Assembly: GCA_009829735.1 (NCBI GenBank)
Contig: CM020618.1
Span: 19,453,346 to 19,517,345 of the forward strand
Source: Pyropia yezoensis
Taxonomy: Eukaryota > Rhodophyta > Bangiophyceae > Bangiales > Bangiaceae
Length of the DNA stretch: 64,000 nucleotides
Direction of reading: 5' to 3'
Positions within the stretch are counted from its first letter, which is position 1, and every line of letters starts with the position of its first letter. Of the stretch, positions 1-61,104 are shown piece after piece. A program made the translations under genes and the position numbers. Under the pieces are notes generated by a model. It was not told the origin of the DNA, searched no databases, and was given only the letters and a program-made list of their open reading frames with translations.

Positions 1-64
1 CCGTTTTGTGTGTGCAGCTGCCGTGGCCGACCGGCTGGCCCCGCCGTGGCCATCGCAGGCACGT

Positions 65-40382: not shown

Positions 40383-40851
40383 TGTGGCAGTATTGACCCC
40401 CAGGTAGGGGGGCAACACGTGCCATGCAAGGGGCGGCAGGCCACTAGCCTGATCCGTTCCTCCCCCTGCATTTGGGTCCATATTCCCTAAGTTTGGGATA
40501 GTTAGCTTAGTAGTAAATCCAACTTGGATTTGAGGGTTTTCTGCATTTATCGTCTTGAATTTTCGTGTGGCCCGGTGGGCAGGTGCTGGGGTGGGAGATT
40601 CTGAGTGGCGAGATTCTGAGTGGACCCTGGGGGGATAAGGGGAGGGACAGCGGGGCTTGGCCCTGCGTCCCCGTCCTGACCAAGAAACTGTTGGACCACA
40701 CACCATCCTCTTGTTTGTCAGTGGGGGGTTTGCCCCACAACAGGGACAGAGTGTGTGCGACTTGCACTTCTTCCGGTTCCCCCGACACGGGAGGCAGCCC
40801 TTGTACACCGTTCCAACTTGGGTGTCGTGTGCGCAAGTGGTTTTTGCCGCA
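40383..40851 (+). mobile_element. Solo LTR of the chromovirus family
   Basis: 469 bp starting TGTGGCAG and ending TTGCCGCA. It is the same length as, and collinear with, the LTRs at 45252 and 54160. It is flanked by the perfect 5-bp direct repeat CCTGC (40378-40382 and 40852-40856), the size expected of Ty3/gypsy integration. About a dozen substitutions separate it from the two element-linked LTRs, so it is an older insertion reduced to a solo LTR by recombination between its ends. Confidence 0.95.
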
Positions 40852-45251: not shown

Positions 45252-45720
45252 TGTGGCATTATTGACCCCCAGGTAGGGGGGCAACACGTGCCATGCAAGG
45301 GGCGGCAGGCCACTAGCCTGATCCGTTCCTCCCCCTGCATTTGGGTCCATATTCCCTAAGTTTGGGATAGTTAGCTTAGTAGTAAATCCAACTTGGATTT
45401 GAGGGTTTTCTGCATTTATCGTCTTGAATTTTCGTGTGGCCCGGTGGGCAGGTGCTGGGGTGGGAGATTCTGAGTGGCGAGATTCTGAGTGGACCCAGGG
45501 GGGATAAGGGGAGGGACAGCGGGGCTTGGCCCTGCGTCCCCGTCCCGACCAAGAAACTGTTGGACCACACACCATCCTCTTGTTTGTCCGTGGGGGGTTT
45601 GCCCCACAACAGGGACAGAGTGTGTGCGACTTGCACTTCTTCCGGTTCCCCCGACACGGGAGGCAGCCCTACCACACCGCCCCAACTTGGGTGCCGTGTG
45701 TGCTAGTGGTTTTTGCCACA
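45252..45720 (+). repeat. 5' LTR of copy 1
   Basis: 469 bp beginning TGTGGCAT and ending TTGCCACA, so the ends form the inverted repeat TGTGGCA/TGCCACA. It contains a perfect 17-bp odd palindrome (AAATCCAACTTGGATTT, 45384-45400) and an 11-bp one (CCCAACTTGGG, 45681-45691). Confidence 0.95.
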
Positions 45721-45722
45721 TT

Positions 45723-45740
45723 TGGTGGAGCAGCAGGGGA
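45723..45740 (+). other. Putative primer-binding site
   Basis: TGGTGGAGCAGCAGGGGA begins two bases after the 5' LTR, where the minus-strand tRNA primer site of LTR elements lies. It starts with the required TGG, the complement of CCA. I could not assign the tRNA. Confidence 0.5.
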
Positions 45741-45839
45741 CAGAGGTAAACTTTACCTCCGGGTGCACCCGGGTGTAGGGAGCCCTCTGTCTCAGAGGAA
45801 CGGTGGTCTTGGACCGTGTCATACGGATCGTCAGCCAAC

Positions 45840-47786
45840 ATGGCTAGCTCGGACCCCCCGTCGTCCGGGGAGTACACGGGTGACGCACGTACTTCAGTGC
45901 CTTTGAAAACTGGTGAGACACAGGTGGGTTTACCTGGGGTCGCAGAGGGACTAGAGGTCCCTCAAGCCAGCAGGACTGGAAGTACGGGCGGGCAACAGGC
46001 CACCCCGACTCAGTCGGGAGTTCACTCGGGTGACACTTCTGATGTGGGTGGGCCGAAGTCTGGCCACCGTGTGGTATACTCAACGGGAACGTCCCAAGGG
46101 GTGAGGACTGTCCCCGCGGGTTCCACTCGGGTTGGAGCCAACTTTGGCTTGGAGTCGTCGCCAACTAGGCTTTCGGAGGACGGTGGACCTCCGTTGGTCG
46201 GCGATGGGCTCGCGCCCATGCCCCCGGTTGAGACCCCTGAGCAACGTGGTTACCCCTCAGGTGGACTCCCGGAGGCGGACCGAGACTCAACTGGAGTCGT
46301 CAATCCACTCCTCGCGGAAACTGTCCGTCGGGAGGCGACCAATGTGTTGCGGCAGACTTTGCCGGACCTGGTGGTCACGATGACGAATACTATTCTGAAT
46401 CAGATTGTGGCGAGTTTGCCAGATGGCCTTAATGTCCAAACCGGATTGGGGCTTTCGAGCCCGCAGGCGCAGGGGGAATCCCCCCTTACGCCTATCTCTG
46501 GTCGCCCCGAACTGGGGGCGACACCTGTGACTCCCAACGAGGGAGCCACACCATACTCGGTGGGGCGTACGCCCTTCACGGGGGAGTTCCCCCCGGAAAC
46601 GCCGGCGGCTACACCAAGCGCGCCGCGCCGGACTACAGGCACTGAGAGTGAACTTACCCCAGTGCCACAGCGGCTGTTCCCTCAACGTGAGGTGCCGCCC
46701 AAGATCCAGGTAGCCAACCCGGTCTACCAGAGGATCTTTGACTGTGAGACCTACGCCCTCCACAACAAGTCGGTGGCGTATGGTCCTGACCAGGCCCGAG
46801 CCATGGGCCGTGCCAAGAAGAATGCACTTCATTCTTTTGGGCACAAAGCGGAGTGGGACGGAACTCCCCCCCTCCGTGTCTTTGAGTTCCTACGTCGTTT
46901 CACAAAAGCCTGCGACGACAATGCCATAAGTGAAGGCATGGCTTTTTACATGCTACAGGAGTTTACGAAGGGCGACCTACGGACAGAACTTATGTCCGTC
47001 ATGCCCAGCTCCTCAAGTGGAGGCTCTGGTGAGGTGACGTCCTATTTGGAGCTCGTCAACTGGTTGTTGAGAGCCATGGTTGATGAGGCAGTGTTGGCTT
47101 CTCAAGTCGAGGAGTTTACGCAAGCCCATCAGGAAGAGGCGGAGGACGAGTTGTCCTTTGCGGAGCGAGTCCGTAAGCTCAACAATCTTTGTGGGTTTCT
47201 TCATCCACAAGCTGTGGTGAAGAGTCGGTTTGTGGAGGGACTCCATTGGTCAGTCCGGATGGAGACCCGGGAGCATAGCACTGCCCGGGCGACCCTGGCC
47301 GAGTTGGCCAGGTTCGCCTATCGCAGAGGCGAGGCCTACCGCAAGTTGCGGGAGGAACAACGCCAGGAGCGTCAGGCCGAGTTGGCCAAGGAACGGGAGG
47401 AGGCGCGCCAGGCCAGAGAGTTGAGAGAGGCACGCCGAATCCGCAAGGAGAGGGTGGTAGCTGCCGTGGGAACTTCCCAGGGTACCTCTTCGTCTTCCCC
47501 AGTTGGGAAGACCCCTCCGGGAACTGACCATCGGTGTTGGAACTGCAACTCCGATGGACACTGGGCATATGACTGCCCCAAGTTGAGTAAACGCATCCAA
47601 CAACTTGTTAGGAATGCGAGTAAGAAGTCGGCTACGAGCGAAGTACGTTCACGCCGCGAGGGTGGGTCTCGACCGGTCGTTGCGGTCGCCACTCCCTCGG
47701 CGGAGGAGGCGGACACGTCGTCCTCGGACTCGTCGTCTTCCTCCCCGCCCTCAGATTCGGACGCCAAGTCGGCGGGAAACGAATGA
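45840..47786 (+). CDS. gag: Gag polyprotein, chromovirus copy 1
   Basis: 648 aa from the ATG at 45840 (context ACATGGCT). The frame opens 8 codons earlier without an ATG. The N-terminal third is Pro/Thr/Ser-rich and disordered-looking. The middle carries the retrotransposon capsid region (LRVFEFLRRFTKACDD, then EFTKGDLRTELMSVMP and LNNLCGFLHPQAVVKSRFVE), followed by a highly charged helix (KLREEQRQERQAELAKEREE). A single CCHC zinc knuckle, CWNCNSDGHWAYDC, marks the nucleocapsid, which binds element RNA. The C-terminus is an acidic serine tail (DTSSSDSSSSSPPSDSD). Gag builds the cytoplasmic virus-like particle in which reverse transcription occurs. Its TGA stop (47784-47786) overlaps the pol ATG as ATGA. 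Confidence 0.95.
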   Translation: MASSDPPSSGEYTGDARTSVPLKTGETQVGLPGVAEGLEVPQASRTGSTGGQQATPTQSGVHSGDTSDVGGPKSGHRVVYSTGTSQGVRTVPAGSTRVGANFGLESSPTRLSEDGGPPLVGDGLAPMPPVETPEQRGYPSGGLPEADRDSTGVVNPLLAETVRREATNVLRQTLPDLVVTMTNTILNQIVASLPDGLNVQTGLGLSSPQAQGESPLTPISGRPELGATPVTPNEGATPYSVGRTPFTGEFPPETPAATPSAPRRTTGTESELTPVPQRLFPQREVPPKIQVANPVYQRIFDCETYALHNKSVAYGPDQARAMGRAKKNALHSFGHKAEWDGTPPLRVFEFLRRFTKACDDNAISEGMAFYMLQEFTKGDLRTELMSVMPSSSSGGSGEVTSYLELVNWLLRAMVDEAVLASQVEEFTQAHQEEAEDELSFAERVRKLNNLCGFLHPQAVVKSRFVEGLHWSVRMETREHSTARATLAELARFAYRRGEAYRKLREEQRQERQAELAKEREEARQARELREARRIRKERVVAAVGTSQGTSSSSPVGKTPPGTDHRCWNCNSDGHWAYDCPKLSKRIQQLVRNASKKSATSEVRSRREGGSRPVVAVATPSAEEADTSSSDSSSSSPPSDSDAKSAGNE

Positions 47787-50700
47787 CCGTTGGGGCTGGT
47801 CGTCCGAAGCTCACAACGGCAGCCTCGGCCAAGTGGGCCAGGAGGACGAACCAACCGTGCCGGATACTGCGGCGACCTAAGGGAGTCCGCCCACCTCGGG
47901 TAGGACTCCCCAAGAACGTAAACCCACGTCGGGTCATCGCGGTGCTGACGGGTGAGAACTTCCAGGTGGCTGGACGGGTGCAACTTGCCCCCGGCCGTGC
48001 ATGCTGTACCCGTATCGTACTTGATACCGGGTCAGGAGCCTCCTTGATACGCAAGTCGCTATTACCAAAGGAGGTGAAGCTCCAACGCTGGAGGTCCAAA
48101 GCTGACCATATGATTGACATCAATGGTGGGGTACTTCCCATCGTTGGTGCCGTGACCCTACCAACTAGGTTGGGGACCCATGAGGTCGACGTGACCTATG
48201 GCGTAGTTGAGAATATATCGGTACCCCTGCTTCTGGGTACCCCTTATGTTGTTACACAAGTGCCTTTGATTTGTGGCCCTGAGTACTGGGTCAAGTTGAT
48301 GAATGGGGAGACTATCCCCATCCTTGGTAAGGGAAAGTCTGTGGCTCCTGTGACAGTCTCACAGTCGAAGCCTGTTTGTTCGGTGAGGGAAGGGTTTACT
48401 GCTACCCTGCGTTTAGCCCGCAAAGTCACGTTGCCCCCCAACTCGGTGGCGCACGTTGATGTTGTAACTGATTTTACGGGGAACGGGTTGGTGCACCCTC
48501 ACCCCCGTCTTGCTCGCAAGCACCAAGTGCATGTTGCCCTTGGCACGATGGACTCCAAGGCCGGAGTCCCGTGGAGGATCCAGGTGATGAACCTGAGCCC
48601 GACGCCCAAGTACTTCAAGTCGGGAGCCAAGTTCGGCTATATCGACCAACACGAGGGACCGGTAGTAGCGGTCACCCTCAACGCGGGCGCAAGTAGCGAC
48701 CCGAAGTCCGGAAAGGAGAAGCATCAAGCCAAGTCGGCCGCCTCTCCTCGACCCCATGTGAACATGGAGGGTGTCCCCCCCAGGTTGAGGGTTCAAGTTG
48801 AACGCCTCTTGGACCAATATCACAAGTTGTGGGATGGTCAATTGGGACTCATGAGAGCCACCCAACACCGGATCGAGTTGAAGCCCGGTGCACCCCCTAT
48901 ACGCCAACAACCGTATAGGGGAGGACCCCGTTCAAGGGCCCTCGTTAAGGAGCAAGTTGCTCGCATGGAGGCCCTCGATGTGATCGAGGCCAGCAACGCC
49001 GAGTGGGCGAGTCCGGTGGTTATCGTCCCCAAAGTTGATGGGACCCCCCGGTTTTGTATCGACTACCGTAAGCTCAACGAGAGCACGGTGAAGGACAGTT
49101 ATCCCCTACCTAGGATGGATGACTGTCTGGACTCTCTGGGGGAGGCAAATGTGTTCTCTACCCTGGACTGTAACGCGGGGTACTGGCAAATTCCCATTGC
49201 CCCGGAGGACAGGCATAAAACTACCTTTACCTGTCACTGTGGTACCTACCAGTGCAAGCGTCTACCGTTTGATCTGTGTAACGCGCCGGCAACTTTCCAG
49301 CGCGCTATGGACATGATTCTGGCCGGAGTACGGTGGCAGATCTGTCTTGTGTACCTAGACGATATCATTGTGTTCTCCCGAAGTCCGGAGGAACACATTG
49401 GCCATCTTGGCCAGGTGTTCAAGCTACTTGCTGACGCCGGTGTGTCACTGAAGGCGAGTAAGTGCCACCTCTTTACTCAAGAGGTGGAGTACTTGGGACA
49501 TGTTGTCCATCCGGGGCGTCTCAGTGTTAACGAGAAGAACTTGAGGGCCATTCGTAAGGCTCAGTACCCCCGGACCCAGACCCAGATGAGGAGCTTCCTC
49601 GGGATGTGTAACGTGTACCGACGTTTCACCAAGGGCTTCGCCAAGGTGGCGAAGCCGTTGAATGAGCTAGTGAGCTCAACGCTACCGAAGAACCTGCCTC
49701 CCCCAAGTCGGGTGGAGCAGGAATCCTTTGAGACTCTTCGGGACCTTCTGCTGAAGCCCCCCATCTTGGCTATTCCCAGGTTGGGAGGCCACTACATCCT
49801 GGATGTGGACGCTAGCTACGAACAACTTGGTTGTGTGTTGCTTCAGCAGCAGCCGGACAAGGAGTACTTGCCGGTGGGATACTTTAGTAAGGGGCTGAAC
49901 TCGGCCGAGAAGAACTACGGAGTCACCGAGTTGGAAGGACTCGCAGTGGTGTGGGCGGTGACGTCACTTCGTCACTACCTGGAGGGTGAGAAGTTCCTCA
50001 TCCGCTGTGACCACCGCGCGTTGCAGTTCATCTTTAAGACGGACTGTACGAACACTCGTCTCAACCGGTGGAGGGTGCGACTGGCACCCTTCAACTTTGA
50101 CATTGAATACCGACCTGGCAGGCAACATGCCCTTGCCGACGGCCTCTCTCGGGTACCTACCGAGGGGCTGGACACTAACCCATTCGATGAGGACATCCCC
50201 ATCGCGGGGGTAGTCACGCGCTCGGGTCAGGCGTTGAACCCCGAGGCGCCAGGGAACAAGAAGTACTTGCCCCTGTCCCTGGACAAGGTGGTGAAGGCCC
50301 AGGCCGAGGATCCCTTCTGCAAGTTGCAGAGGGATATACTGGATACAGTGGTAGAGACGCGTTTCTTTCTGGGAGACGATGGCCTCCTCATGAGGAGGGG
50401 GGTATTCCAGGGGACCGAACAACTTGTCGTCCCCGCATCCCTCAAGGACAGTATCCTTGAGAGGGAGCACAACGCTCCCACGGGTGGACACCTGGGGTCT
50501 AGTAAACTGTACCAGACCCTGAGGACCAGGTACTACTGGCCGTCCATGGTGGTGGACATCTACAGTTGGGTGGCTGCCTGCACAAGTTGTGCACAGAACC
50601 GTCTGATGGAACGGCGGCCTACTACGGCTATGCTATTGTTCCCGGCCAAGGAGCCCTTCGCCGCGTTGGCGATGGACATCCTTGGGCCACTGCCCGTGAC

Positions 50701-51766
50701 CGAGGAGGGCAACCAGTACCTCCTGGTCGTCTGTGACCGCTTCACGAAACTTACGCGAGCGATCCCACTGGCAGAGATCACGGCCATGTCGGTCGTGTCA
50801 GCCTTCCTAGATCACTGGGTTGCCGCGTATGGCATCCCAGATAGTACACTATCGGACAATGGACCGCAATTTGCGTCTGTACTGTTTCAGGGAGTGCTGG
50901 ATATGTTGGGGGTTAAGGCAAACTATGCCACCCCCTACCACCCACAAACTAATGGGCAGGTGGAGCGCTTCAACAAAACTATTGTTAGGCAGCTGCGCCA
51001 CTATGTGAGTGAGCACGTGAAGACGTGGGACCACTACATTTCTATCCTTACTACTGCCTACAATTCGCAGGTTCACTCATCTACAGGGGAAGTACCCCTC
51101 GCTTTAGTGACCCCCCGTCGCGTGCGGTCTATTGCCGTGCGGCGGTCGCTCCCAACTAGGGAGGATGGTGGCAGTACGCCTACTCCTACTGAGAGTAAGG
51201 CGGAGTTCGCCGCTAGGCTTGAGAACCTCATCCCTAAAGTCAGGGCTGAGATGGACAAAGCACAAAAGCGCTACAAGCGTACCTTTGACAAAAAGGTGGG
51301 CAATGCTAAACATGTCGCCGAGCAGGGTGACTGGGTGCTGGTACACTCGCACACCCCAACTGGGGGTAAGCTGGTATTCCAGACGAAGGGACCGTACCAG
51401 GTCCTTCGTACTGATGGGCGGCGCTTCACCATCGAAAGTGACGATGGGGTCCGCACAGTGAACGGACAGGACGTGGTCAAAGTTGCACCACCGCCTGCAG
51501 GCGACCCAGCTTGGGCGCGTGCTTTGGAAGCGTGGCGCCTCCCCTCACTGCCTGCGGCCAAACAGGGCCCGCAGGAGTACGTGTTCGATAAGTTCATCGA
51601 CCACGGATGGGATGAAGACACTGACCGCCTCATGTTGAGGGTGCGTTGGTTTGGCTACAAAGCCAAGGATGATACGTGGGAGTATGTGGAGGACCTTCCC
51701 GCTGAGAAGGTCCGGGCGTACTGTGCCCGGAATGAGATAGACCCTAACAGCCCTCCCTCAACGTGA
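47783..51766 (+). CDS. pol: Pol polyprotein with chromodomain, copy 1
   Basis: 1327 aa from the ATG at 47783, which overlaps the gag stop by four bases. Domains in order: aspartic protease (active site LDTGSGASLI, D81, with LLLGTPYV downstream); reverse transcriptase (WASPVVIVPKVDGTPRFCID, STLDCNAGYWQIP and the catalytic YLDD at about 524-527); RNase H (YILDVDASYEQLGCVLLQQ, then ELEGLAVVWAV and IRCDHRALQF); integrase with an H2C2 zinc site (EHNAPTGGHLG, then CTSCAQNR) and the DDE core (AMDILGPLP, LSDNGPQF, NGQVERFN, about 964/1024/1060); and a C-terminal chromodomain (about 1265-1318, YVFDKFIDHG, LMLRVRWFGYKAKDDTWEYV). Chromodomains of this group guide integration toward marked chromatin. The frame is intact and every catalytic motif is present, so this copy looks capable of autonomous transposition. 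Confidence 0.97.
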   Translation: MTVGAGRPKLTTAASAKWARRTNQPCRILRRPKGVRPPRVGLPKNVNPRRVIAVLTGENFQVAGRVQLAPGRACCTRIVLDTGSGASLIRKSLLPKEVKLQRWRSKADHMIDINGGVLPIVGAVTLPTRLGTHEVDVTYGVVENISVPLLLGTPYVVTQVPLICGPEYWVKLMNGETIPILGKGKSVAPVTVSQSKPVCSVREGFTATLRLARKVTLPPNSVAHVDVVTDFTGNGLVHPHPRLARKHQVHVALGTMDSKAGVPWRIQVMNLSPTPKYFKSGAKFGYIDQHEGPVVAVTLNAGASSDPKSGKEKHQAKSAASPRPHVNMEGVPPRLRVQVERLLDQYHKLWDGQLGLMRATQHRIELKPGAPPIRQQPYRGGPRSRALVKEQVARMEALDVIEASNAEWASPVVIVPKVDGTPRFCIDYRKLNESTVKDSYPLPRMDDCLDSLGEANVFSTLDCNAGYWQIPIAPEDRHKTTFTCHCGTYQCKRLPFDLCNAPATFQRAMDMILAGVRWQICLVYLDDIIVFSRSPEEHIGHLGQVFKLLADAGVSLKASKCHLFTQEVEYLGHVVHPGRLSVNEKNLRAIRKAQYPRTQTQMRSFLGMCNVYRRFTKGFAKVAKPLNELVSSTLPKNLPPPSRVEQESFETLRDLLLKPPILAIPRLGGHYILDVDASYEQLGCVLLQQQPDKEYLPVGYFSKGLNSAEKNYGVTELEGLAVVWAVTSLRHYLEGEKFLIRCDHRALQFIFKTDCTNTRLNRWRVRLAPFNFDIEYRPGRQHALADGLSRVPTEGLDTNPFDEDIPIAGVVTRSGQALNPEAPGNKKYLPLSLDKVVKAQAEDPFCKLQRDILDTVVETRFFLGDDGLLMRRGVFQGTEQLVVPASLKDSILEREHNAPTGGHLGSSKLYQTLRTRYYWPSMVVDIYSWVAACTSCAQNRLMERRPTTAMLLFPAKEPFAALAMDILGPLPVTEEGNQYLLVVCDRFTKLTRAIPLAEITAMSVVSAFLDHWVAAYGIPDSTLSDNGPQFASVLFQGVLDMLGVKANYATPYHPQTNGQVERFNKTIVRQLRHYVSEHVKTWDHYISILTTAYNSQVHSSTGEVPLALVTPRRVRSIAVRRSLPTREDGGSTPTPTESKAEFAARLENLIPKVRAEMDKAQKRYKRTFDKKVGNAKHVAEQGDWVLVHSHTPTGGKLVFQTKGPYQVLRTDGRRFTIESDDGVRTVNGQDVVKVAPPPAGDPAWARALEAWRLPSLPAAKQGPQEYVFDKFIDHGWDEDTDRLMLRVRWFGYKAKDDTWEYVEDLPAEKVRAYCARNEIDPNSPPST

Positions 51767-51877
51767 GGGAAGGCAGAGCAACAGTGCCAAGAGAGTGCTT
51801 CAAGTCGAAGTGGTACGCAGAGTGGCTTTTAACTACAGCCCTAACCCTCACATTCTCACAACAAAGGCAGCTACCAA
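51767..51877. other. Short convergent gap between pol and the antisense ORF
   Basis: 111 bp separate the pol TGA from the antisense ORF stop. It includes a one-mismatch palindrome around 51798-51810 (CTTCAAGTCGAAG). Another, at 51754-51770, spans the pol stop codon. Confidence 0.7.
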
Positions 51878-53821
51878 CTAGGCACGCATGCTAGACTCTC
51901 CCACTCCACGGCCCTCGCCCTCACGTGGAGGCGAGCGGCGAGACCCACGCCGATAACGGTCTCCACGTGTTGGAGGGGGCGGCGGCTCCAAGTCGGAACC
52001 GTCGCGCCCCTCACGGTCGCGCAAGTGGCGCCGACCGTGGCCACTCTTCTGCCTGGTCTTGCGCGCAAGTTTGCGACGCAGACGCTGGACAGACTCCGTC
52101 TCCGACGGAGTAGAGGACTCCGAAACGGAGTAAGACAACTCGTCTTCCGATACGGAAGGAGAGCGCCGCGAGTGTCGGCGACGACGGCGAGGAGGCGAGT
52201 ATGCCCGGCTCGCGCGACGTTTGCCACGCCCAAGTGGGGCTGGCTGGGGCATAATAGCCCCAATGCGAGCCAACTCGGCTGTCATAAACTCCGCCACCGA
52301 CTCGCAACTCGCGGTCGCCACTGCAGTACGAACGCGCTCCTCAAGTTGAGGAGTCTCGGAATTCTGTAGGGTTGCGGTCGACGCGGCCAACCAGGAAATG
52401 GTGCGCACCAACGTGGTGATCATCATCTCTGAGGTTAGAGGCGTGGGCGGCAACACCAACTTGGGGTACACCGTCAGGAGGGTGGCCCCCAAGTTGGGGG
52501 ACACCGGGGTGGAAGACTCCACGGCCACGCTGATCGGGATGTTCCCGTGAGGTTGGAAAGGAACCGGAGGAAGCGGAGGGGCCCGCCGAGGTGGCGGTAC
52601 CCGGGTGTAACTGCGACCCCGACTTGGGGCTCCCGCAGTGGGTTGAGTCATGTGGTCATCATAGGACGGCACGGCCATAACTATGGGCTTGTCCGGGGGT
52701 GGCGCAGTGTGGCGATCCACCCCCGGGGCATACGGGTAGTCCCCGATGCCCAACCCCTCTCGTAGGACCACACGGCCGTCATGAAGTTCACGAGCGACCG
52801 ACACGAACTGGCGAAGTGCGCCATCGTCCTTGGGCCCACGAGTGGGGCGGCGCACCTTGTGCTCAATGCTCTCCCACTCGATAAACTTATGGAGCCGGAG
52901 CATCTCCTCAAGTAGAGTGAGTTGTCCTGATGAGCACCCCTCAGCAACTAGCTGAGGGGTGAGCTGTTCCAAACCTTGGAGGAGCCGGAGGGGGAGATGC
53001 CAGAGCATCCCCCGCCGCTGAACACAGGACACCCAGGTCGACATGACCTCGAGGAGCCACTGGGTGGCCAACATGGCCCACACCAGGTGATCAGGGGCAG
53101 CCGTCAACATGACGGAGCCGAAGTGGTCAAGCAACCGTGGCAACAACGCCGGGAACCCGTAGGGGACCTCAACTTGAGGCCACCACTCGGGCTTCTTCGG
53201 AAAGTACTGCTCCTTACTGGCAGCAGACTGTTGGGGAAACTCAAGTTGAGCCGAGGTCACCAAGTAGGGACCTCGCCGGAAGTCTTTCTCCATCCGCACA
53301 TCAAAGTGATGAGTGTGCGGATCGGCCTCGTGGAGGTACGGTGGGCGAGTTGCCACAGCGTCCCACGTGAAGGTCGGCAAGTCGCCGGGACCCGGGATAG
53401 TTCCCCCGCGGTCCACCATGGCCTTGGCACGCTGAACGTCCTCAACCTCCTCATCGTCCAGGAAGGCAAACTGGTCCGTCCTGAAGCCGGCAGGGAACCC
53501 GACCCTACGGGGATACTTCTCCCGTAGGCGGTCCCATACTCGGCCCATCGCTGCGCCAAGTCGGCCACTGCAAAGAACAGTCAGCCCCTCCTCATAGAGA
53601 GGCCAAGCGGGGTAAAACCACCGCCCCAAGGCCTCACGCGGGACAACTTGTCCCGCCTCCGGGGGAGACCCCGCCGTCAACCCAAAGCCGGGCGACGCGG
53701 GAGTCCCGTCCCCCGGAGCGATCGCGGAGCCCCCGCCGGAAGTCCCGGCGGGTGCTGCCCCGTAGGAGGCGTCCTCCATGCGCTCGTCAAGAGAGTCCGT
53801 CTCCACTCCCGGAGTCGCCAT
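51878..53821 (-). CDS. Antisense ORF between pol and the 3' LTR
   Basis: A 647-aa ORF on the strand opposite gag-pol, from the ATG at 53821 (sense context GCCATGGCG) to TAG at 51878-51880. I do not recognise the family. The N-terminus is Gly/Pro/Ala-rich. A globular-looking middle (about 75-330) has WFYPAWPLYEEGLTVLCSGR, TFTWDAVATRPPYLHEADPH, YFPKKPEWWPQVEVPYGFPA and LVWAMLATQWLLEVMSTWVS. A second folded segment (about 430-520) contains LTSEMMITTLVRTISWLAAS, and the C-terminus is an RS-like basic/serine tail (AYSPPRRRRRHSRRSPSVSE, LRRKLARKTRQKSGHGRRHL). No signal peptide or strong membrane helix suggests an envelope. Position and orientation resemble the antisense accessory ORFs known in some plant gypsy elements, where roles are unclear. 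Balanced composition, a 647-codon length and a good start context support real coding. Confidence 0.7.
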   Translation of the reverse strand: MATPGVETDSLDERMEDASYGAAPAGTSGGGSAIAPGDGTPASPGFGLTAGSPPEAGQVVPREALGRWFYPAWPLYEEGLTVLCSGRLGAAMGRVWDRLREKYPRRVGFPAGFRTDQFAFLDDEEVEDVQRAKAMVDRGGTIPGPGDLPTFTWDAVATRPPYLHEADPHTHHFDVRMEKDFRRGPYLVTSAQLEFPQQSAASKEQYFPKKPEWWPQVEVPYGFPALLPRLLDHFGSVMLTAAPDHLVWAMLATQWLLEVMSTWVSCVQRRGMLWHLPLRLLQGLEQLTPQLVAEGCSSGQLTLLEEMLRLHKFIEWESIEHKVRRPTRGPKDDGALRQFVSVARELHDGRVVLREGLGIGDYPYAPGVDRHTAPPPDKPIVMAVPSYDDHMTQPTAGAPSRGRSYTRVPPPRRAPPLPPVPFQPHGNIPISVAVESSTPVSPNLGATLLTVYPKLVLPPTPLTSEMMITTLVRTISWLAASTATLQNSETPQLEERVRTAVATASCESVAEFMTAELARIGAIMPQPAPLGRGKRRASRAYSPPRRRRRHSRRSPSVSEDELSYSVSESSTPSETESVQRLRRKLARKTRQKSGHGRRHLRDREGRDGSDLEPPPPPTRGDRYRRGSRRSPPREGEGRGVGESSMRA

Positions 53822-54146
53822 GGCTCTCCCCAAGTTGGGGAGAAAAGCTCTGGCTATCGCAGCACGAGACCCGCCTCGAGTTGAGGGGGACTCGGATCGT
53901 GGGTATACGGGTGGCCTCCCCAGCGTGGGGCGGCCCAGTGGAAGGTGAAGGGGAGGTGGTGGTGATGGTGAAATGTGAACTGAGGAGAGCAAGCTGCCGA
54001 GTTGGCAAGCTTGAGGAGAGGGGCGGTCACCGTGACCGCCTCCACATCCGTGTTACATACTCGATGGGGGACAGCAAGTCGCGCCCCCAACGCCGAGACG
54101 TGCGTTTACGCACCCCCTCACAGGGCCGACCGGGTCGGTCGGAACT

Positions 54147-54159
54147 GAGGAGAGGGGAG
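54147..54159 (+). other. Polypurine tract
   Basis: GAGGAGAGGGGAG abuts the TGTGGCAG start of the 3' LTR, the expected plus-strand primer position for LTR retrotransposons. Confidence 0.85.
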
Positions 54160-54628
54160 TGTGGCAGTATTGACCCCCAGGTAGGGGGGCAACACGTGCC
54201 ATGCAAGGGGCGGCAGGCCACTAGCCTGATCCGTTCCTCCCCCTGCATTTGGGTCCAAATTCCCTAAGTTTGGGATAGTTAGCTTAGTAGTAAATCCAAC
54301 TTGGATTTGAGGGTTTTCTGCATTTATCGTCTTGAATTTTCGTGTGGCCCGGTGGGCAGGTGCTGGGGTGGGAGATTCTGAGTGGCGAGATTCTGAGTGG
54401 ACCCTGGGGGGATAAGGGGAGGGACAGCGGGGCTTGGCCCTGCGTCCCCGTCCCGACCAAGAAACTGTTGGACCACACACCATCCTCTTGTTTGTCCGTG
54501 GGGGGTTTGCCCCACAACAGGGACAGAGTGTGTGCGACTTGCACTTCTTCCGGTTCCCCCGACACGGGAGGCAGCCCTACCACACCGCCCCAACTTGGGT
54601 GCCGTGTGTGCTAGTGGTTTTTGCCACA
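54160..54628 (+). repeat. LTR shared by copies 1 and 2
   Basis: 469 bp, TGTGGCAG to TTGCCACA. It serves as 3' LTR of copy 1 and 5' LTR of copy 2, and is followed by the same primer-binding-like site (54631-54648). It differs from the 45252 LTR at about three bases. Confidence 0.95.
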
Positions 54629-54747
54629 TTTGGTGGAGCAGCAGGGGACAGAGGTAAACTTTACCTCCGGGTGCACCCGGGTGTAGGGGGCCCTCTGTCT
54701 CAGAGGAACGGTGGTCTTGGACCGTGTCATACGGATCGTCAGCCAAC

Positions 54748-56694
54748 ATGGCTAGCTCGGACCCCCCGTCGTCCGGGGAGTACACGGGTGACGCACGTAC
54801 TTCAGTGCCTTTGAAAACTGGTGAGACACAGGTGGGTTTACCTGGGGTCGCAGAGGGACTAGAGGTCCCTCAAGCCAGCAGGACTGGAAGTACGGGCGGG
54901 CAACAGGCCACCCCGACTCAGTCGGGAGTTCACTCGGGTGACACTTCTGATGTGGGTGGGCCGAAGTCTGGCCACCGTGTGGTATACTCAACGGGAACGT
55001 CCCAAGGGGTGAGGACTGTCCCCGCGGGTTCCACTCGGGTTGGAGCCAACTTTGGCTTGGAGTCGTCGCCAACTAGGCTTTCGGAGGACGGTGGACCTCC
55101 GTTGGTCGGCGATGGGCTCGCGCCCATGCCCCCGGTTGAGACCCCTGAGCAACGTGGTTACCCCTCAGGTGGACTCCCGGAGGCGGACCGAGACTCAACT
55201 GGAGTCGTCAATCCACTCCTCGCGGAAACTGTCCGTCGGGAGGCGACCAATGTGTTGCGGCAGACTTTGCCGGACCTGGTGGTCACGATGACGAATACTA
55301 TTCTGAATCAGATTGTGGCGAGTTTGCCAGATGGCCTTAATGTCCAAACCGGATTGGGGCTTTCGAGCCCGCAGGCGCAGGGGGAATCCCCCCTTACGCC
55401 TATCTCTGGTCGCCCCGAACGGGGGGCGACACCTGTGACTCCCAACGAGGGAGCCACACCATACTCGGTGGGGCGTACGCCCTTCACGGGGGAGTTCCCC
55501 CCGGAAACGCCGGCGGCTACACCAAGCGCGCCGCGCCGGACTACAGGCACTGAGAGTGAACTTACCCCAGTGCCACAGCGGCTGTTCCCTCAACGTGAGG
55601 TGCCGCCCAAGATCCAGGTAGCCAACCCGGTCTACCAGAGGATCTTTGACTGTGAGACCTACGCCCTCCACAACAAGTCGGTGGCGTATGGTCCTGACCA
55701 GGCCCGAGCCATGGGCCGTGCCAAGAAGAATGCACTTCATTCTTTTGGGCACAAAGCGGAGTGGGACGGAACTCCCCCCCTCCGTGTCTTTGAGTTCCTA
55801 CGTCGTTTCACAAAAGCCTGCGACGACAATGCCATAAGTGAAGGCATGGCTTTTTACATGCTACAGGAGTTTACGAAGGGCGACCTACGGACAGAACTTA
55901 TGTCCGTCATGCCCAGCTCCTCAAGTGGAGGCTCTGGTGAGGTGACGTCCTATTTGGAGCTCGTCAACTGGTTGTTGAGAGCCATGGTTGATGAGGCAGC
56001 GTTGGCTTCTCAAGTCGAGGAGTTTACGCAAGCCCATCAGGAAGAGGCGGAGGACGAGTTGTCCTTTGCGGAGCGAGTCCGTAAGCTCAACAATCTTTGT
56101 GGGTTTCTTCATCCACAAGCTGTGGTGAAGAGTCGGTTTGTGGAGGGACTCCATTGGTCAGTCCGGATGGAGACCCGGGAGCATAGCACTGCCCGGGCGA
56201 CCCTGGCCGAGTTGGCCAGGTTCGCCTATCGCAGAGGCGAGGCCTACCGCAAGTTGCGGGAGGAACAACGCCAGGAGCGTCAGGCCGAGTTGGCCAAGGA
56301 ACGGGAGGAGGCGCGCCAGGCCAGAGAGTTGAGAGAGGCACGCCGAATCCGCAAGGAGAGGGTGGTAGCTGCCGTGGGAACTTCCCAGGGTACCTCTTCG
56401 TCTTCCCCAGTTGGGAAGACCCCTCCGGGAACTGACCATCGGTGTTGGAACTGCAACTCCGATGGACACTGGGCATATGACTGCCCCAAGTTGAGTAAAC
56501 GCATCCAACAACTTGTTAGGAATGCGAGTAAGAAGTCGGCTACGAGCGAAGTACGTTCACGCCGCGAGGGTGGGTCTCGACCGGTCGTTGCGGTCGCCAC
56601 TCCCTCGGCGGAGGAGGCGGACACGTCGTCCTCGGACTCGTCGTCTTCCTCCCCGCCCTCAGATTCGGACGCCAAGTCGGCGGGAAACGAATGA
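54748..56694 (+). CDS. gag: Gag polyprotein, copy 2
   Basis: Intact 648-aa gag from the ATG at 54748. Compared with copy 1 I see an L-to-R change in the GRPELGATP stretch and a V-to-A change in MVDEAVLASQ, with few or no other differences. The CCHC knuckle and acidic Ser tail are unchanged. The TGA again overlaps the pol ATG (ATGA at 56691-56694). Confidence 0.93.
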   Translation: MASSDPPSSGEYTGDARTSVPLKTGETQVGLPGVAEGLEVPQASRTGSTGGQQATPTQSGVHSGDTSDVGGPKSGHRVVYSTGTSQGVRTVPAGSTRVGANFGLESSPTRLSEDGGPPLVGDGLAPMPPVETPEQRGYPSGGLPEADRDSTGVVNPLLAETVRREATNVLRQTLPDLVVTMTNTILNQIVASLPDGLNVQTGLGLSSPQAQGESPLTPISGRPERGATPVTPNEGATPYSVGRTPFTGEFPPETPAATPSAPRRTTGTESELTPVPQRLFPQREVPPKIQVANPVYQRIFDCETYALHNKSVAYGPDQARAMGRAKKNALHSFGHKAEWDGTPPLRVFEFLRRFTKACDDNAISEGMAFYMLQEFTKGDLRTELMSVMPSSSSGGSGEVTSYLELVNWLLRAMVDEAALASQVEEFTQAHQEEAEDELSFAERVRKLNNLCGFLHPQAVVKSRFVEGLHWSVRMETREHSTARATLAELARFAYRRGEAYRKLREEQRQERQAELAKEREEARQARELREARRIRKERVVAAVGTSQGTSSSSPVGKTPPGTDHRCWNCNSDGHWAYDCPKLSKRIQQLVRNASKKSATSEVRSRREGGSRPVVAVATPSAEEADTSSSDSSSSSPPSDSDAKSAGNE

Positions 56695-59600
56695 CCGTTG
56701 GGGCTGGTCGTCCGAAGCTCACAACGGCAGCCTCGGCCAAGTGGGCCAGGAGGACGAACCAACCGTGCCGGATACTGCGGCGACCTAAGGGAGTCCGCCC
56801 ACCTCGGGTAGGACTCCCCAAGAACGTAAACCCACGTCGGGTCATCGCGGTGCTGACGGGTGAGAACTTCCAGGTGGCTGGACGGGTGCAACTTGCCCCC
56901 GGCCGTGCATGCTGTACCCGTATCGTACTTGATACCGGGTCAGGAGCCTCCTTGATACGCAAGTCGCTATTACCAAAGGAGGTGAAGCTCCAACGCTGGA
57001 GGTCCAAAGCTGACCATATGATTGACATCAATGGTGGGGTACTTCCCATCGTTGGTGCCGTGACCCTACCAACTAGGTTGGGGACCCATGAGGTCGACGT
57101 GACCTATGGCGTAGTTGAGAATATATCGGTACCCCTGCTTCTGGGTACCCCTTATGTTGTTACACAAGTGCCTTTGATTTGTGGCCCTGAGTACTGGGTC
57201 AAGTTGATGAATGGGGAGACTATCCCCATCCTTGGTAAGGGAAAGTCTGTGGCTCCTGTGACAGTCTCACAGTCGAAGCCTGTTTGTTCGGTGAGGGAAG
57301 GGTTTACTGCTACCCTGCGTTTAGCCCGCAAAGTCACGTTGCCCCCCAACTCGGTGGCGCACGTTGATGTTGTAACTGATTTTACGGGGAACGGGTTGGT
57401 GCACCCTCACCCCCGTCTTGCTCGCAAGCACCAAGTGCATGTTGCCCTTGGCACGATGGACTCCAAGGCCGGAGTCCTGTGGAGGATCCAGGTGATGAAC
57501 CTGAGCCCGACGCCCAAGTACTTCAAGTCGGGAGCCAAGTTCGGCTATATCGACCAACACGAGGGACCGGTAGTAGCGGTCACCCTCAACGCGGGCGCAA
57601 GTAGCGACCCGAAGTCCGGAAAGGAGAAGCATCAAGCCAAGTCGGCCGCCTCTCCTCGACCCCATGTGAACATGGAGGGTGTCCCCCCCAGGTTGAGGGT
57701 TCAAGTTGAACGCCTCTTGGACCAATATCACAAGTTGTGGGATGGTCAATTGGGACTCATGAGAGCCACCCAACACCGGATCGAGTTGAAGCCCGGTGCA
57801 CCCCCTATACGCCAACAACCGTATAGGGGAGGACCCCGTTCAAGGGCCCTCGTTAAGGAGCAAGTTGCTCGCATGGAGGCCCTCGATGTGATCGAGGCCA
57901 GCAACGCCGAGTGGGCGAGTCCGGTGGTTATCGTCCCCAAAGTTGATGGGACCCCCCGGTTTTGTATCGACTACCGTAAGCTCAACGAGAGCACGGTGAA
58001 GGACAGTTATCCCCTACCTAGGATGGATGACTGTCTGGACTCTCTGGGGGAGGCAAATGTGTTCTCTACCCTGGACTGTAACGCGGGGTACTGGCAAATT
58101 CCCATTGCCCGGAGGACAGGCATAAAACTACCTTTACCTGTCACTGTGGTACCTACCAGTGCAAGCGTCTACCGTTTGATCTGTGTAACGCGCCCGGCAA
58201 CTTTCCAGCGCGCTATGGACATGATTCTGGCCGGAGTACGGTGGCAGATCTGTCTTGTGTACCTAGACGATATCATTGTGTTCTCCCGAAGTCCGGAGGA
58301 ACACATTGGCCATCTTGGCCAGGTGTTCAAGCTACTTGCTGACGCCGGTGTGTCACTGAAGGCGAGTAAGTGCCACCTCTTTACTCAAGAGGTGGAGTAC
58401 TTGGGACATGTTGTCCATCCGGGGCGTCTCAGTGTTAACGAGAAGAACTTGAGGGCCATTCGTAGGCTCAGTACCCCCGGACCCAGACCCAGATGAGGAG
58501 CTTCCTCGGGATGTGTAACGTGTACCGACGTTTCACCAAGGGCTTCGCCAAGGTGGCGAAGCCGTTGAATGAGCTAGTGAGCTCAACGCTACCGAAGAAC
58601 CTGCCTCCCCCAAGTCGGGTGGAGCAGGAATCCTTTGAGACTCTTCGGGACCTTCTGCTGAAGCCCCCCATCTTGGCTATTCCCAGGTTGGGAGGCCACT
58701 ACATCCTGGATGTGGACGCTAGCTACGAACAACTTGGTTGTGTGTTGCTTCAGCAGCAGCCGGACAAGGAGTACTTGCCGGTGGGATACTTTAGTAAGGG
58801 GCTGAACTCGGCCGAGAAGAACTACGGAGTCACCGAGTTGGAAGGACTCGCAGTGGTGTGGGCGGTGACGTCACTTCGTCACTACCTGGAGGGTGAGAAG
58901 TTCCTCATCCGCTGTGACCACCGCGCGTTGCAGTTCATCTTTAAGACGGACTGTACGAACACTCGTCTCAACCGGTGGAGGGTGCGACTGGCACCCTTCA
59001 ACTTTGACATTGAATACCGACCTGGCAGGCAACATGCCCTTGCCGACGGCCTCTCTCGGGTACCTACCGAGGGGCTGGACACTAACCCATTCGATGAGGA
59101 CATCCCCATCGCGGGGGTAGTCACGCGCTCGGGTCAGGCGTTGAACCCCGAGGCGCCAGGGAACAAGAAGTACTTGCCCCTGTCCCTGGACAAGGTGGTG
59201 AAGGCCCAGGCCGAGGATCCCTTCTGCAAGTTGCAGAGGGATATACTGGATACAGTGGTAGAGACGCGTTTCTTTCTGGGAGACGATGGCCTCCTCATGA
59301 GGAGGGGGTATTCCAGGGGACCGAACAACTTGTCGTCCCCGCATCCCTCAAGGACAGTATCCTTGAGAGGGAGCACAACGCTCCCACGGGTGGACACCTG
59401 GGGTCTAGTAAACTGTACCAGACCCTGAGGACCAGGTACTACTGGCCGTCCATGGTGGTGGACATCTACAGTTGGGTGGCTGCCTGCACAAGTTGTGCAC
59501 AGAACCGTCTGATGGAACGGCGGCCTACTACGGCTATGCTATTGTTCCCGGCCAAGGAGCCCTTCGCCGCGTTGGCGATGGACATCCTTGGGCCACTGCC

Positions 59601-60604
59601 CCGTGACCGAGGAGGGCAACCAGTACCTCCTGGTCGTCTGTGACCGCTTCACGAACTTACGCGAGCGATCCCACTGGCAGAGATCACGGCCATGTCGGTC
59701 GTGTCAGCCTTCCTAGATCACTGGGTTGCCGCGTATGGCATCCCAGATAGTACACTATCGGACAATGGACCGCAATTTGCGTCTGTACTGTTTCAGGGAG
59801 TGCTGGATATGTTGGGGGTTAAGGCAAACTATGCCACCCCCTACCACCCACAACTAATGGGCAGGTGGAGCGCTTCAACAAAACTATTGTTAGGCAGCTG
59901 CGCCACTATGTGAGTGAGCACGTGAAGACGTGGGACCACTACATTTCTATCCTTACTACTGCCTACAATTCGCAGGTTCACTCATCTACAGGGAAGTACC
60001 CCTCGCTTTAGTGACCCCCCGTCGCGTGCGGTCTATTGCCGTGCGGCGGTCGCTCCCAACTAGGGAGGATGGTGGCAGTACGCCTACTCCTACTGAGAGT
60101 AAGGCGGAGTTCGCCGCTAGGCTTGAGAACCTCATCCCTAAAGTCAGGGCTGAGATGGACAAAGCACAAAAGCGCTACAAGCGTACCTTTGACAAAAAGG
60201 TGGGCAATGCTAAACATGTCGCCGAGCAGGGTGACTGGGTGCTGGTACACTCGCACACCCCAACTGGGGGTAAGCTGGTATTCCAGACGAAGGGACCGTA
60301 CCAGTCCTTCGTACTGATGGGCGGCGCTTCACCATCGAAAGTGACGATGGGGTCCGCACAGTGAACGGACAGGACGTGGTCAAAGTTGCACCACCGCCCT
60401 GCAGGCGACCCAGCTTGGGCGCGTGCTTTGGAAGCGTGGCGCCTCCCCTCACTGCCTGCGGCCAAAACAGGGCCCGCAGGAGTACGTGTTCGATAAGTTC
60501 ATCGACCACGGATGGGATGAAGACACTGACCGCCTCATGTTGAGGGTGCGTTGGTTTGGCTACAAAGCCAAGGATGATACGTGGGAGTATGTGGAGGACC
60601 TTCC
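56691..60604 (+). pseudogene. pol: Pol, copy 2: frameshifted and gap-truncated
   Basis: This starts intact (protease DTGSG, then RT) and carries a P-to-L change relative to copy 1 at KAGVPWRI. Single-base indels in short homopolymers then break it: a C lost near 58110 and one gained near 58193 put about 28 codons of RT out of frame. Losses near 58463, 59307, 59657, 59852, 59993 and 60304, and gains near 59602, 60398 and 60467, scramble RNase H and integrase. The YLDD box is still readable. Because all changes are +/-1 in homopolymers, crowd toward the gap and are matched by similar errors on its other side, sequencing error is at least as likely as true decay. Confidence 0.8.
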
Positions 60605-61104
60605 NNNNNNNNNNNNNNNNNNNNNNNNNNNNNNNNNNNNNNNNNNNNNNNNNNNNNNNNNNNNNNNNNNNNNNNNNNNNNNNNNNNNNNNNNNNNNNNN
60701 NNNNNNNNNNNNNNNNNNNNNNNNNNNNNNNNNNNNNNNNNNNNNNNNNNNNNNNNNNNNNNNNNNNNNNNNNNNNNNNNNNNNNNNNNNNNNNNNNNNN
60801 NNNNNNNNNNNNNNNNNNNNNNNNNNNNNNNNNNNNNNNNNNNNNNNNNNNNNNNNNNNNNNNNNNNNNNNNNNNNNNNNNNNNNNNNNNNNNNNNNNNN
60901 NNNNNNNNNNNNNNNNNNNNNNNNNNNNNNNNNNNNNNNNNNNNNNNNNNNNNNNNNNNNNNNNNNNNNNNNNNNNNNNNNNNNNNNNNNNNNNNNNNNN
61001 NNNNNNNNNNNNNNNNNNNNNNNNNNNNNNNNNNNNNNNNNNNNNNNNNNNNNNNNNNNNNNNNNNNNNNNNNNNNNNNNNNNNNNNNNNNNNNNNNNNN
61101 NNNN
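60605..61104. other. Assembly gap (500 N)
   Basis: Exactly 500 N, a conventional placeholder length, so the true distance is unknown. Sequence on the left is the pol chromodomain of copy 2 and on the right is gag of another copy. At least the antisense region and an LTR are expected in between if both belong to one tandem array. Confidence 1.

What the first reader, a model, noticed from the sequence alone, without database searches (positions are those of the whole stretch)
45384..54308. Retrotransposon saturated with odd-length palindromes centred on CAA(G/C)TTG
Reading the element base by base, I find at least 15 perfect palindromes of 11-19 nt with a single unpaired central G or C and core CAAGTTG/CAACTTG, plus more than 20 with one mismatch, up to 27 nt (arm CACCCCTCAGC at 52935-52945, its complement at 52951-52961). 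The arms differ between sites, so these are not copies of one repeat; only the core recurs. They fall in the LTR (AAATCCAACTTGGATTT), gag, RT, integrase and the antisense ORF, and in all three codon phases, for example across the integrase zinc site (TGCACAAGTTGTGCA). A coding sequence carrying this signal suggests selection on DNA or RNA, such as a dimeric protein site, repeated RNA hairpins or packaging signals. Alternatively, a hairpin-templated mutation process during reverse transcription may be perfecting quasi-palindromes. In other genes of the window I noticed no such density.
Basis: seen in the sequence. Interest (0 to 1): 0.87.

Follow-up and report, generated by a model that had tools for sequence, protein, structure and literature searches.

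The report
Retrotransposon studded with shared-loop hairpins
A common jumping gene of the nori seaweed carries about seventy short hairpins, with different stems but nearly the same loop, spread through all its genes, which looks like a repeated signal that something reads on its RNA or its DNA copy.

Summary
The element is one 8,908-bp period (45252-54159) of a Ty3/gypsy-type retrotransposon in a genome matching Pyropia yezoensis. It holds 77 odd-centred hairpins: at least 4 of 5 pairs around a 5-base loop N-A-(G/C)-T-N; CAASTTG is one form. The three ORFs hold 69, against a mean of 8.6 and a maximum of 17 in 1000 codon-preserving shuffles. Stems share no sequence. Loops favour A at -2 on the plus strand, also inside the antisense gene, so the feature follows one strand. 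Families 43-52% identical in pol, and host DNA, lack it. Between copies the loop centre changes little (4 column changes, all G<->C) and stems change at about 0.65 of background, so selection is likely, though ascertainment inflates this. A dimeric dsDNA-protein site is unlikely. My best reading is dispersed recognition hairpins on genomic RNA, packaging-signal-like and probably read by Gag (0.43). A cDNA-level structure or hairpin-templated mutation stays open, because G-U pairs are not favoured. Binding protein and function are untested.

The parts
45252..45720 (+). 5' LTR (TGTGGCA...TGCCACA), holds 5 of the hairpins
54160..54628 (+). 3' LTR, shared with the next tandem copy
45721..45740 (+). 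putative primer binding site next to the LTR (assigned by position only)
   Evidence: sequence
45816..47786 (+). gag ORF, 656 aa, CCHC zinc knuckle; 20 hairpins
47783..51766 (+). pol ORF, 1327 aa: RT, RNase H, integrase, weak chromodomain; 29 hairpins
51878..53992 (-). antisense ORF, 704 aa, no Pfam match, evolves as coding; 20 hairpins
45252..54159 (+). whole set of 77 A(G/C)T-centred hairpins (>=4 of 5 WC pairs at +-3..7); every centre is listed, the 28 with 5/5 pairs follow (outer extents allow one mismatch)
45306..45320 (+). hairpin, loop CACTA
45384..45400 (+). LTR hairpin, loop AACTT
45741..45761 (+). hairpin, loop AACTT
46284..46298 (+). hairpin, loop AACTG
46348..46366 (+). hairpin, loop GACTT
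46816..46838 (+). hairpin, loop CACTT
47143..47157 (+). hairpin, loop GAGTT
47289..47317 (+). hairpin, loop GAGTT; copy L015 has two compensated pairs here
47492..47512 (+). hairpin, loop CAGTT
48301..48323 (+). hairpin, loop GACTA
48348..48364 (+). hairpin, loop CAGTC
49465..49487 (+). hairpin, loop TACTC
50069..50093 (+). hairpin, loop GACTG
50313..50333 (+). hairpin, loop AAGTT
50439..50463 (+). hairpin, loop CAGTA
50579..50593 (+). hairpin over the integrase zinc site (C-T-S-C-A), loop AAGTT
50972..50986 (+). hairpin, loop AACTA
51085..51099 (+). hairpin, loop AAGTA
51149..51163 (+). hairpin, loop AACTA
51353..51367 (+). hairpin, loop AACTG
52130..52148 (+). hairpin, loop AACTC
52337..52353 (+). 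hairpin, loop AAGTT
52481..52505 (+). hairpin, loop AAGTT
52809..52823 (+). hairpin, loop AAGTG
52935..52961 (+). hairpin, 11-bp stem, loop AACTA; also present in subfamily B copies
53636..53658 (+). hairpin, loop AACTT; not seen in the subfamily B copies
53728..53756 (+). hairpin, stem of 12 positions with one mismatch, loop AAGTC; also present in subfamily B copies
53825..53843 (+). hairpin, loop AAGTT

Best explanation
The element carries about 70 real stem-loops out of 77 called. Each is a stem of at least 4-5 Watson-Crick pairs with free sequence, most often closed by C-G, around a 5-base loop (A)A(G/C)TN on the plus strand. Shown: number, loop, orientation, spread over all genes, absence from the sister families sampled. 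Likely: they are kept by selection on the replicating lineage. Inferred: they are repeated recognition sites on the full-length genomic RNA, read by one loop-specific protein, most simply Gag, so that each RNA molecule is picked, condensed and packaged by many weak contacts, as dispersed packaging signals are thought to work in single-stranded RNA viruses.
For: Codon-preserving shuffles: 69 hairpins in the three ORFs against a mean of 8.56 and a maximum of 17 in 1000. Loop specificity: A(G/C)T 76/321, all other triplets 204/8563; A-T-T 1/40 and A-A-T 2/36 are not clearly raised. Arms have no shared sequence. Orientation: A at -2 in 49/76, T at +2 in 30/76; A only 31, T only 12, p = 0.005; inside the antisense gene A at -2 is 16/20 on the plus strand, so orientation follows the genomic RNA and not the reading direction. 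Spread: gag 10.2, pol 7.3, antisense ORF 9.5 per kb. Constraint between copies, column states observed/expected: stems 72/110 (0.65), loop -1 8/15.1, 0 4/11.3, +1 5/17.7; for A(G/C)T outside hairpins the same three positions are 0.93, 0.73 and 1.10. All 4 loop-centre column changes are G<->C. At 4-fold sites: stems 41/915, background 717/9489. With hairpins defined in a third copy: stems 0.76, centre 0.53 over 82 overlapping triples. Subfamily B keeps the loop rule, 123/802 against 720/26595, partly at other sites. Double changes in stems k3-7: 4 of 5 keep pairing, 3 of the 4 in one copy. Gag has a CCHC knuckle.
Against: No wobble preference. In 76 sites the mismatches are 7 G-U and 11 A-C of 49; stem changes to G-U 24/36.7, A-C 22/30.4, other 26/43. 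RNA folding of +-60 nt gives the plus strand no advantage (0.703 against 0.753, p = 0.34). Ascertaining hairpins in the reference branch can by itself roughly halve apparent rates, so part of the constraint is not selection, and the A(G/C)T centre outside hairpins is itself at 0.73. Position -2, which should be held if the A is recognised, is 0.76 but 1.34. Across 28 subfamily B copies, stem and core columns vary like the background. No binding protein is known, and Gag was not tested.
Confidence: 0.43

Rival explanations
1. The selected structure is single-stranded DNA: hairpins in the first-strand cDNA (or plus-strand DNA), bound by a protein or used in strand transfer or DNA synthesis.
For: Pairs are Watson-Crick only, with no G-U excess; orientation fits either strand of the single-stranded intermediate; minus-strand folding is as good as plus-strand.
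Against: No known retrotransposon step needs some 70 dispersed DNA hairpins (recalled). The wobble test rests on small numbers (49 mismatches).
Confidence: 0.22
2. A mutation process: during reverse transcription the nascent strand folds back at A(G/C)T seeds and copies its own arm, perfecting quasi-palindromes that have no function.
For: Arms are exact complements without wobble; hairpins sit where the protein is variable (identity 0.31-0.38 against about 0.48); 3' arms vary a little more than 5' arms (40 against 27 states).
Against: The loop centre is held to G or C (4 of 4 column changes are G<->C, none an exact inversion of the loop) and stays low when hairpins are defined in a third copy (0.53). 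Protein conservation shows no 5'/3' arm difference (0.377 and 0.345, permutation fraction 0.69). Families with homologous RT at 43-52% identity in the same genome lack them. Non-coding stretches are not denser (7 in about 0.84 kb).
Confidence: 0.24
3. Sites for a symmetric dimeric DNA-binding protein of the host or the element.
For: Odd centre with G/C at the dyad and A..T beside it, as many dimer sites have (recalled).
Against: The arms share no sequence, yet are complementary within each site; orientation bias; substitution at +2 is 1.80 against 0.76 at -2 (2.82 against 1.34).
Confidence: 0.06
4. Palindromic integration targets: the 5-base loop is a preferred 5-bp target site for nested insertion.
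For: The element makes 5-bp target duplications; weak palindrome preference is published for plant LTR elements (PMC6911290, abstract and section 8 read).
Against: The two target duplications readable here, CCTGC (solo LTR at 40383-40851) and GCTGC (L017), are not N-A-(G/C)-T-N. The published effect is tiny (5.5 against 5.4 nt).
Confidence: 0.02
5. Composition, codon usage or chance.
For: The genome is G+C rich and palindromes are common in it.
Against: Dinucleotide and codon-preserving shuffles, host DNA and sister families.
Confidence: 0.01

Closest known systems
Dispersed packaging signals of single-stranded RNA viruses (MS2 type; PMC6281560, abstract and section 5 read)
   Same: Many stem-loops spread through coding RNA, free stems, a degenerate shared loop motif (MS2: xxYA).
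   Different: Here in a Ty3/gypsy-type LTR retrotransposon; the signal is visible in the sequence alone; loop A-A-S-U-N; no bulge motif noticed; no wobble tolerance seen; binding unknown.
Palindromic repeated motifs of Sireviruses (PMC2829016, passages read)
   Same: Palindromes repeated within a plant LTR retrotransposon.
   Different: Those have a CGG-CCG core; the passages place them in the LTR and beside the env gene and compare them with transcriptional activator sites. Here the arms are free and coding regions are full of them.
Stem-loop targets of loop-reading proteins such as Smaug/Vts1 or Roquin (recalled, not searched)
   Same: Loop sequence read on an arbitrary stem.
   Different: Different loop; usually one or a few per mRNA (recalled).
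HIP1 iterated palindromes of cyanobacteria (PMC4390886, search listing only)
   Same: Very many short palindromes.
   Different: HIP1 is one fixed double-stranded palindrome; here the arms differ from site to site.

Membership tests
Ty3/gypsy LTR retrotransposon (Metaviridae type) | RT - RNase H - integrase order in one pol, CCHC gag, LTRs TG..CA | tested here: met
Ty3/gypsy LTR retrotransposon (Metaviridae type) | chromodomain at the pol C-terminus (chromovirus branch) | tested here: inconclusive
   PF00385 19.5 bits, cut-off 25.1, E 9.6e-4
Dispersed packaging signals | multiple stem-loops with a shared loop motif across the genome | tested here: met
Dispersed packaging signals | works as RNA: G-U pairs tolerated, plus-strand structure favoured | tested here: not met
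   no G-U excess; no plus-strand folding advantage; small numbers, so I file it as working like, not as a member
Dispersed packaging signals | capsid or Gag protein binds the stem-loops and needs them for assembly | not testable with these tools
   needs binding and assembly assays
Dimeric protein binding site | shared half-site sequence | tested here: not met
   pair tables
Sirevirus repeated motifs | CGG-CCG core near env or in the LTR | tested here: not met
Quasi-palindrome template switching | one arm rewritten from the other (directional) | tested here: inconclusive
   no protein-level arm difference; slight 3' excess of variants

The most novel reading that the evidence does not exclude
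A whole LTR-retrotransposon genome is written over with a hairpin code: some 70 stem-loops with one common loop, laid across sense genes, an antisense gene and the LTR alike, and read on the genomic RNA or its cDNA by a single loop-specific protein. That would be a distributed self-recognition system of which my searches showed no example in LTR retrotransposons (listings).
Probability: 0.4. Interest if true: 0.92.

Novelty: new variant of a known kind. Interest (0 to 1): 0.8.

Why it matters
How LTR retrotransposons and retroviruses single out their own RNA is mostly explained by a few signals, many near the 5' end (recalled). An element with about 70 near-identical loop signals, countable and testable one by one and absent in sister families of the same genome, would make the idea of dispersed packaging signals directly testable. 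If the mutational reading is right instead, it would show a reverse transcription error process strong enough to reshape a whole genome. Either outcome is informative.

Tried and rejected
Rejected: chance and codon usage; dimeric dsDNA site; integration target; link to the antisense gene, because families without hairpins also carry a homologous antisense ORF (23% identity, E 1e-7); inversion of the loop as the source of the G<->C swaps (4 events, none an exact inversion of the 5-base loop). Loop scans (loops 3-9) found no comparable motif in L016 (first 5.4 kb), L021 or the second half of L015 (the best, L021 loop 7, was 5 hairpins, p 4e-4 before correction for many tests).

Led nowhere: viral-contig scan for pol relatives (none); Pfam for the antisense protein (none); antisense homologues in the protein database (one hit at 96%); literature on palindromes or hairpins in retrotransposons (nothing matching in the listings) and on retrotransposons of Pyropia and Porphyra. 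Structure prediction of the antisense protein and a search for intermediate families with P0006 and P0008 did not complete.

Mended on checking: the host control and the A(G/C)T centre control were first written too favourably, and the -2 conflict between searches was missing; for these I lowered the best reading from 0.45 to 0.43 and raised the mutation rival from 0.22 to 0.24.
Full report
WHAT IT IS. The window lies in a 107-Mb genome whose three main contigs are 43.6, 34.3 and 29.4 Mb. These are the scaffold sizes published for the red alga Pyropia yezoensis, which also has 65% G+C and mostly LTR retrotransposons among its repeats (PMC7423979, passages read). The element is one 8,908-bp period of a tandem array. 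Its LTR is 45252-45720 and the next LTR is 54160-54628. Gag is 45816-47786 with a CCHC knuckle, pol is 47783-51766 with RT, RNase H, integrase and a weak chromodomain match, and an antisense ORF of 704 aa lies at 51878-53992. A solo LTR at 40383-40851 has a 5-bp duplication CCTGC. The 15-base integrase palindrome occurs 867 times in the genome, its reversed control once.

CHECK OF THE OBSERVATION. CAASTTG occurs 21 times in 45384-54291 (mean 1.2, max 4 in 200 shuffles). Odd palindromes with arms of at least 6 occur 18 times (mean 3.1, max 9). Even palindromes are only mildly raised, 6 against a mean of 2.2 and a max of 7. Flanks of the 21 cores pair at +-4..8 in 19, 17, 13, 11 and 12 of 21. 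The true unit is broader: position +-2 is often unpaired, and the fixed part is A(G/C)T in the centre. Among 321 such triplets, 76 (24%) have at least 4 of 5 pairs at +-3..7, against 204 of 8563 (2.4%) for all other triplets; A-T-T (1/40) and A-A-T (2/36) are not clearly raised. Counted over one exact period the number is 77, 28 of them with 5/5 pairs. Codon-preserving shuffles give 8.56 (max 17 of 1000) against 69 in the three ORFs. By the background rate about 8 of the 77 are chance.

ANATOMY. The closing pair is C-G in 43 of 76; the arms beyond it show no sequence preference except G+C. A stands at -2 in 49/76, T at +2 in 30/76; A-only 31 against T-only 12, p = 0.005. The bias stays on the plus strand inside the antisense gene (A at -2 in 16/20, T at +2 in 9/20; taken alone p = 0.065). 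AGT loops 46, ACT loops 30. Codon phases are mixed, and density is 10.2, 7.3 and 9.5 per kb in gag, pol and the antisense ORF. In pol, the 29 hairpins sit at less conserved residues (identity 0.31-0.38 against about 0.48 over 18 homologues), with no difference between 5' and 3' arms.

WHERE IT OCCURS. I took 20 evenly spaced 10-kb stretches of contig C1 (1 to 20 Mb). Seven that hold internal parts of this family have 7.9-22% of A(G/C)T triplets in hairpins; the other 13, one of them with only an LTR end of the family, have 1.6-4.4%. Related families at about 43-52% pol identity in the same genome have background levels: L016 4/256, L021 4/185, L015 second half 1/166; the piece of L023 matching their antisense ORF has 1/55. 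A scan over loops of 3-9 found no comparable motif in L016, L021 and L015. At orthologous pol sites those families pair 1.47-1.65 of 5 positions, slightly above their background of 1.26-1.28. They do carry a homologous antisense ORF (L016 and L021), so that gene does not explain the hairpins. Subfamily B is 28 copies 80-100% identical to a 1-kb piece of L028 (one of them L028 itself), which is 77% identical to the window there; open frames in L029-L036 are short. It has 123/802 A(G/C)T hairpins against 720/26595 for other triplets. Some sites are shared, two (alignment columns 349, 627) are not in the window element, and two window sites (columns 588 and 854, the latter 53647) are missing from it. 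These copies share ancestry, so their counts are not independent.

SELECTION OR MUTATION. Comparing 18 of 30 aligned rows (at least 75% identity and 1000 aligned bases; two are the window's own tandem copies), column states observed/expected are 0.65 in stems (72/110), 8/15.1, 4/11.3 and 5/17.7 at loop -1, 0 and +1, 12/15.7 at -2 and 24/13.3 at +2. For A(G/C)T outside hairpins the five positions from -2 to +2 are 1.00, 0.93, 0.73, 1.10 and 0.83; stems of non-A(G/C)T palindromes are 0.81. The four centre changes are all G<->C. At four-fold sites stems change 41/915, background 717/9489, +-1 4/159, +2 22/132. Defining hairpins in the reference biases these rates down, so I defined them in a third copy: stems 0.76, +-1 0.74, centre 0.53, -2 1.34, +2 2.82, over 82 overlapping triples. 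Single triples are small, and two of the eight printed exceed 1 at +-1. Double changes in stems at +-3..7: 4 of 5 keep pairing, 3 of these in L015. In the 1-kb alignment 14 of 46 double-sided states are paired, against 7.5 in shuffles (6 of 1000 reach 14), a control that ignores ancestry. Against selection: the B copies show no constraint in stems (0.77 singletons and 0.44 shared variants per column, background 0.68 and 0.47) or cores (0.62 and 0.52). That is expected if dead copies drift, but it is no support either.

RNA OR DNA. For RNA one expects G-U pairs to be tolerated. They are not favoured: 7 G-U and 11 A-C among 49 mismatches, and changes to G-U, A-C and other mismatches are about equally depleted, 0.65, 0.72 and 0.61. 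Folding +-60 nt gives no plus-strand advantage; the same hairpins set in random element contexts pair less on both strands (0.50 and 0.57), but that control cuts stems longer than 6 pairs. So strand orientation is supported, but the molecule (genomic RNA or cDNA) is not decided.

READING. The simplest account is a distributed recognition signal on the genomic RNA, read by a loop-specific protein such as Gag, comparable in logic to the dispersed packaging signals proposed for RNA viruses (PMC6281560, abstract and section 5 read). A review of Ty1 and Ty3 encapsidation, searched for 'packaging signal', 'hairpin' and 'dispersed', held none of these terms (PMC4974528, passages read). My literature searches (listings) showed no report of such a hairpin set in a retrotransposon; most subscription papers are not covered. 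Rivals are hairpin-templated mutation (0.24) and a cDNA-level structure (0.22).

Noticed in passing
51878-53992 (-): The antisense ORF evolves as a real gene: 367 silent against 278 replacement changes in its frame, 106/539 in a shifted frame. A 23% identical antisense ORF follows pol in L016 and L021, so this gene is old in the lineage; function unknown.
   Followed up: partly
hairpin loops, position +2: The fifth loop base varies 1.8-2.8 times more than background, also at four-fold sites; unexplained, perhaps an extruded or mutable base. Across the 7 subfamily B sites it has 6 singletons but only 1 shared variant in 7 columns.
   Followed up: partly
45252-64000: Tandem copies share LTRs: a second copy starts at 54160, a further one lies beyond the 500-N gap at 60605-61104.
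   Followed up: partly
22543-23358: Array of 14 overlapping copies at 48-bp spacing in host DNA.
   Followed up: no
54031 and 50390: Strong palindromes without the A(G/C)T centre also occur in the element (GGCGGTCACCGTGACCGCC; CCTCCTCATGAGGAGG); by the criterion, 58 of 97 five-base-loop hairpins lack the A(G/C)T centre.
   Followed up: no
L013: Two copies of the element lie head to head, about 1.5 kb apart.
   Followed up: no
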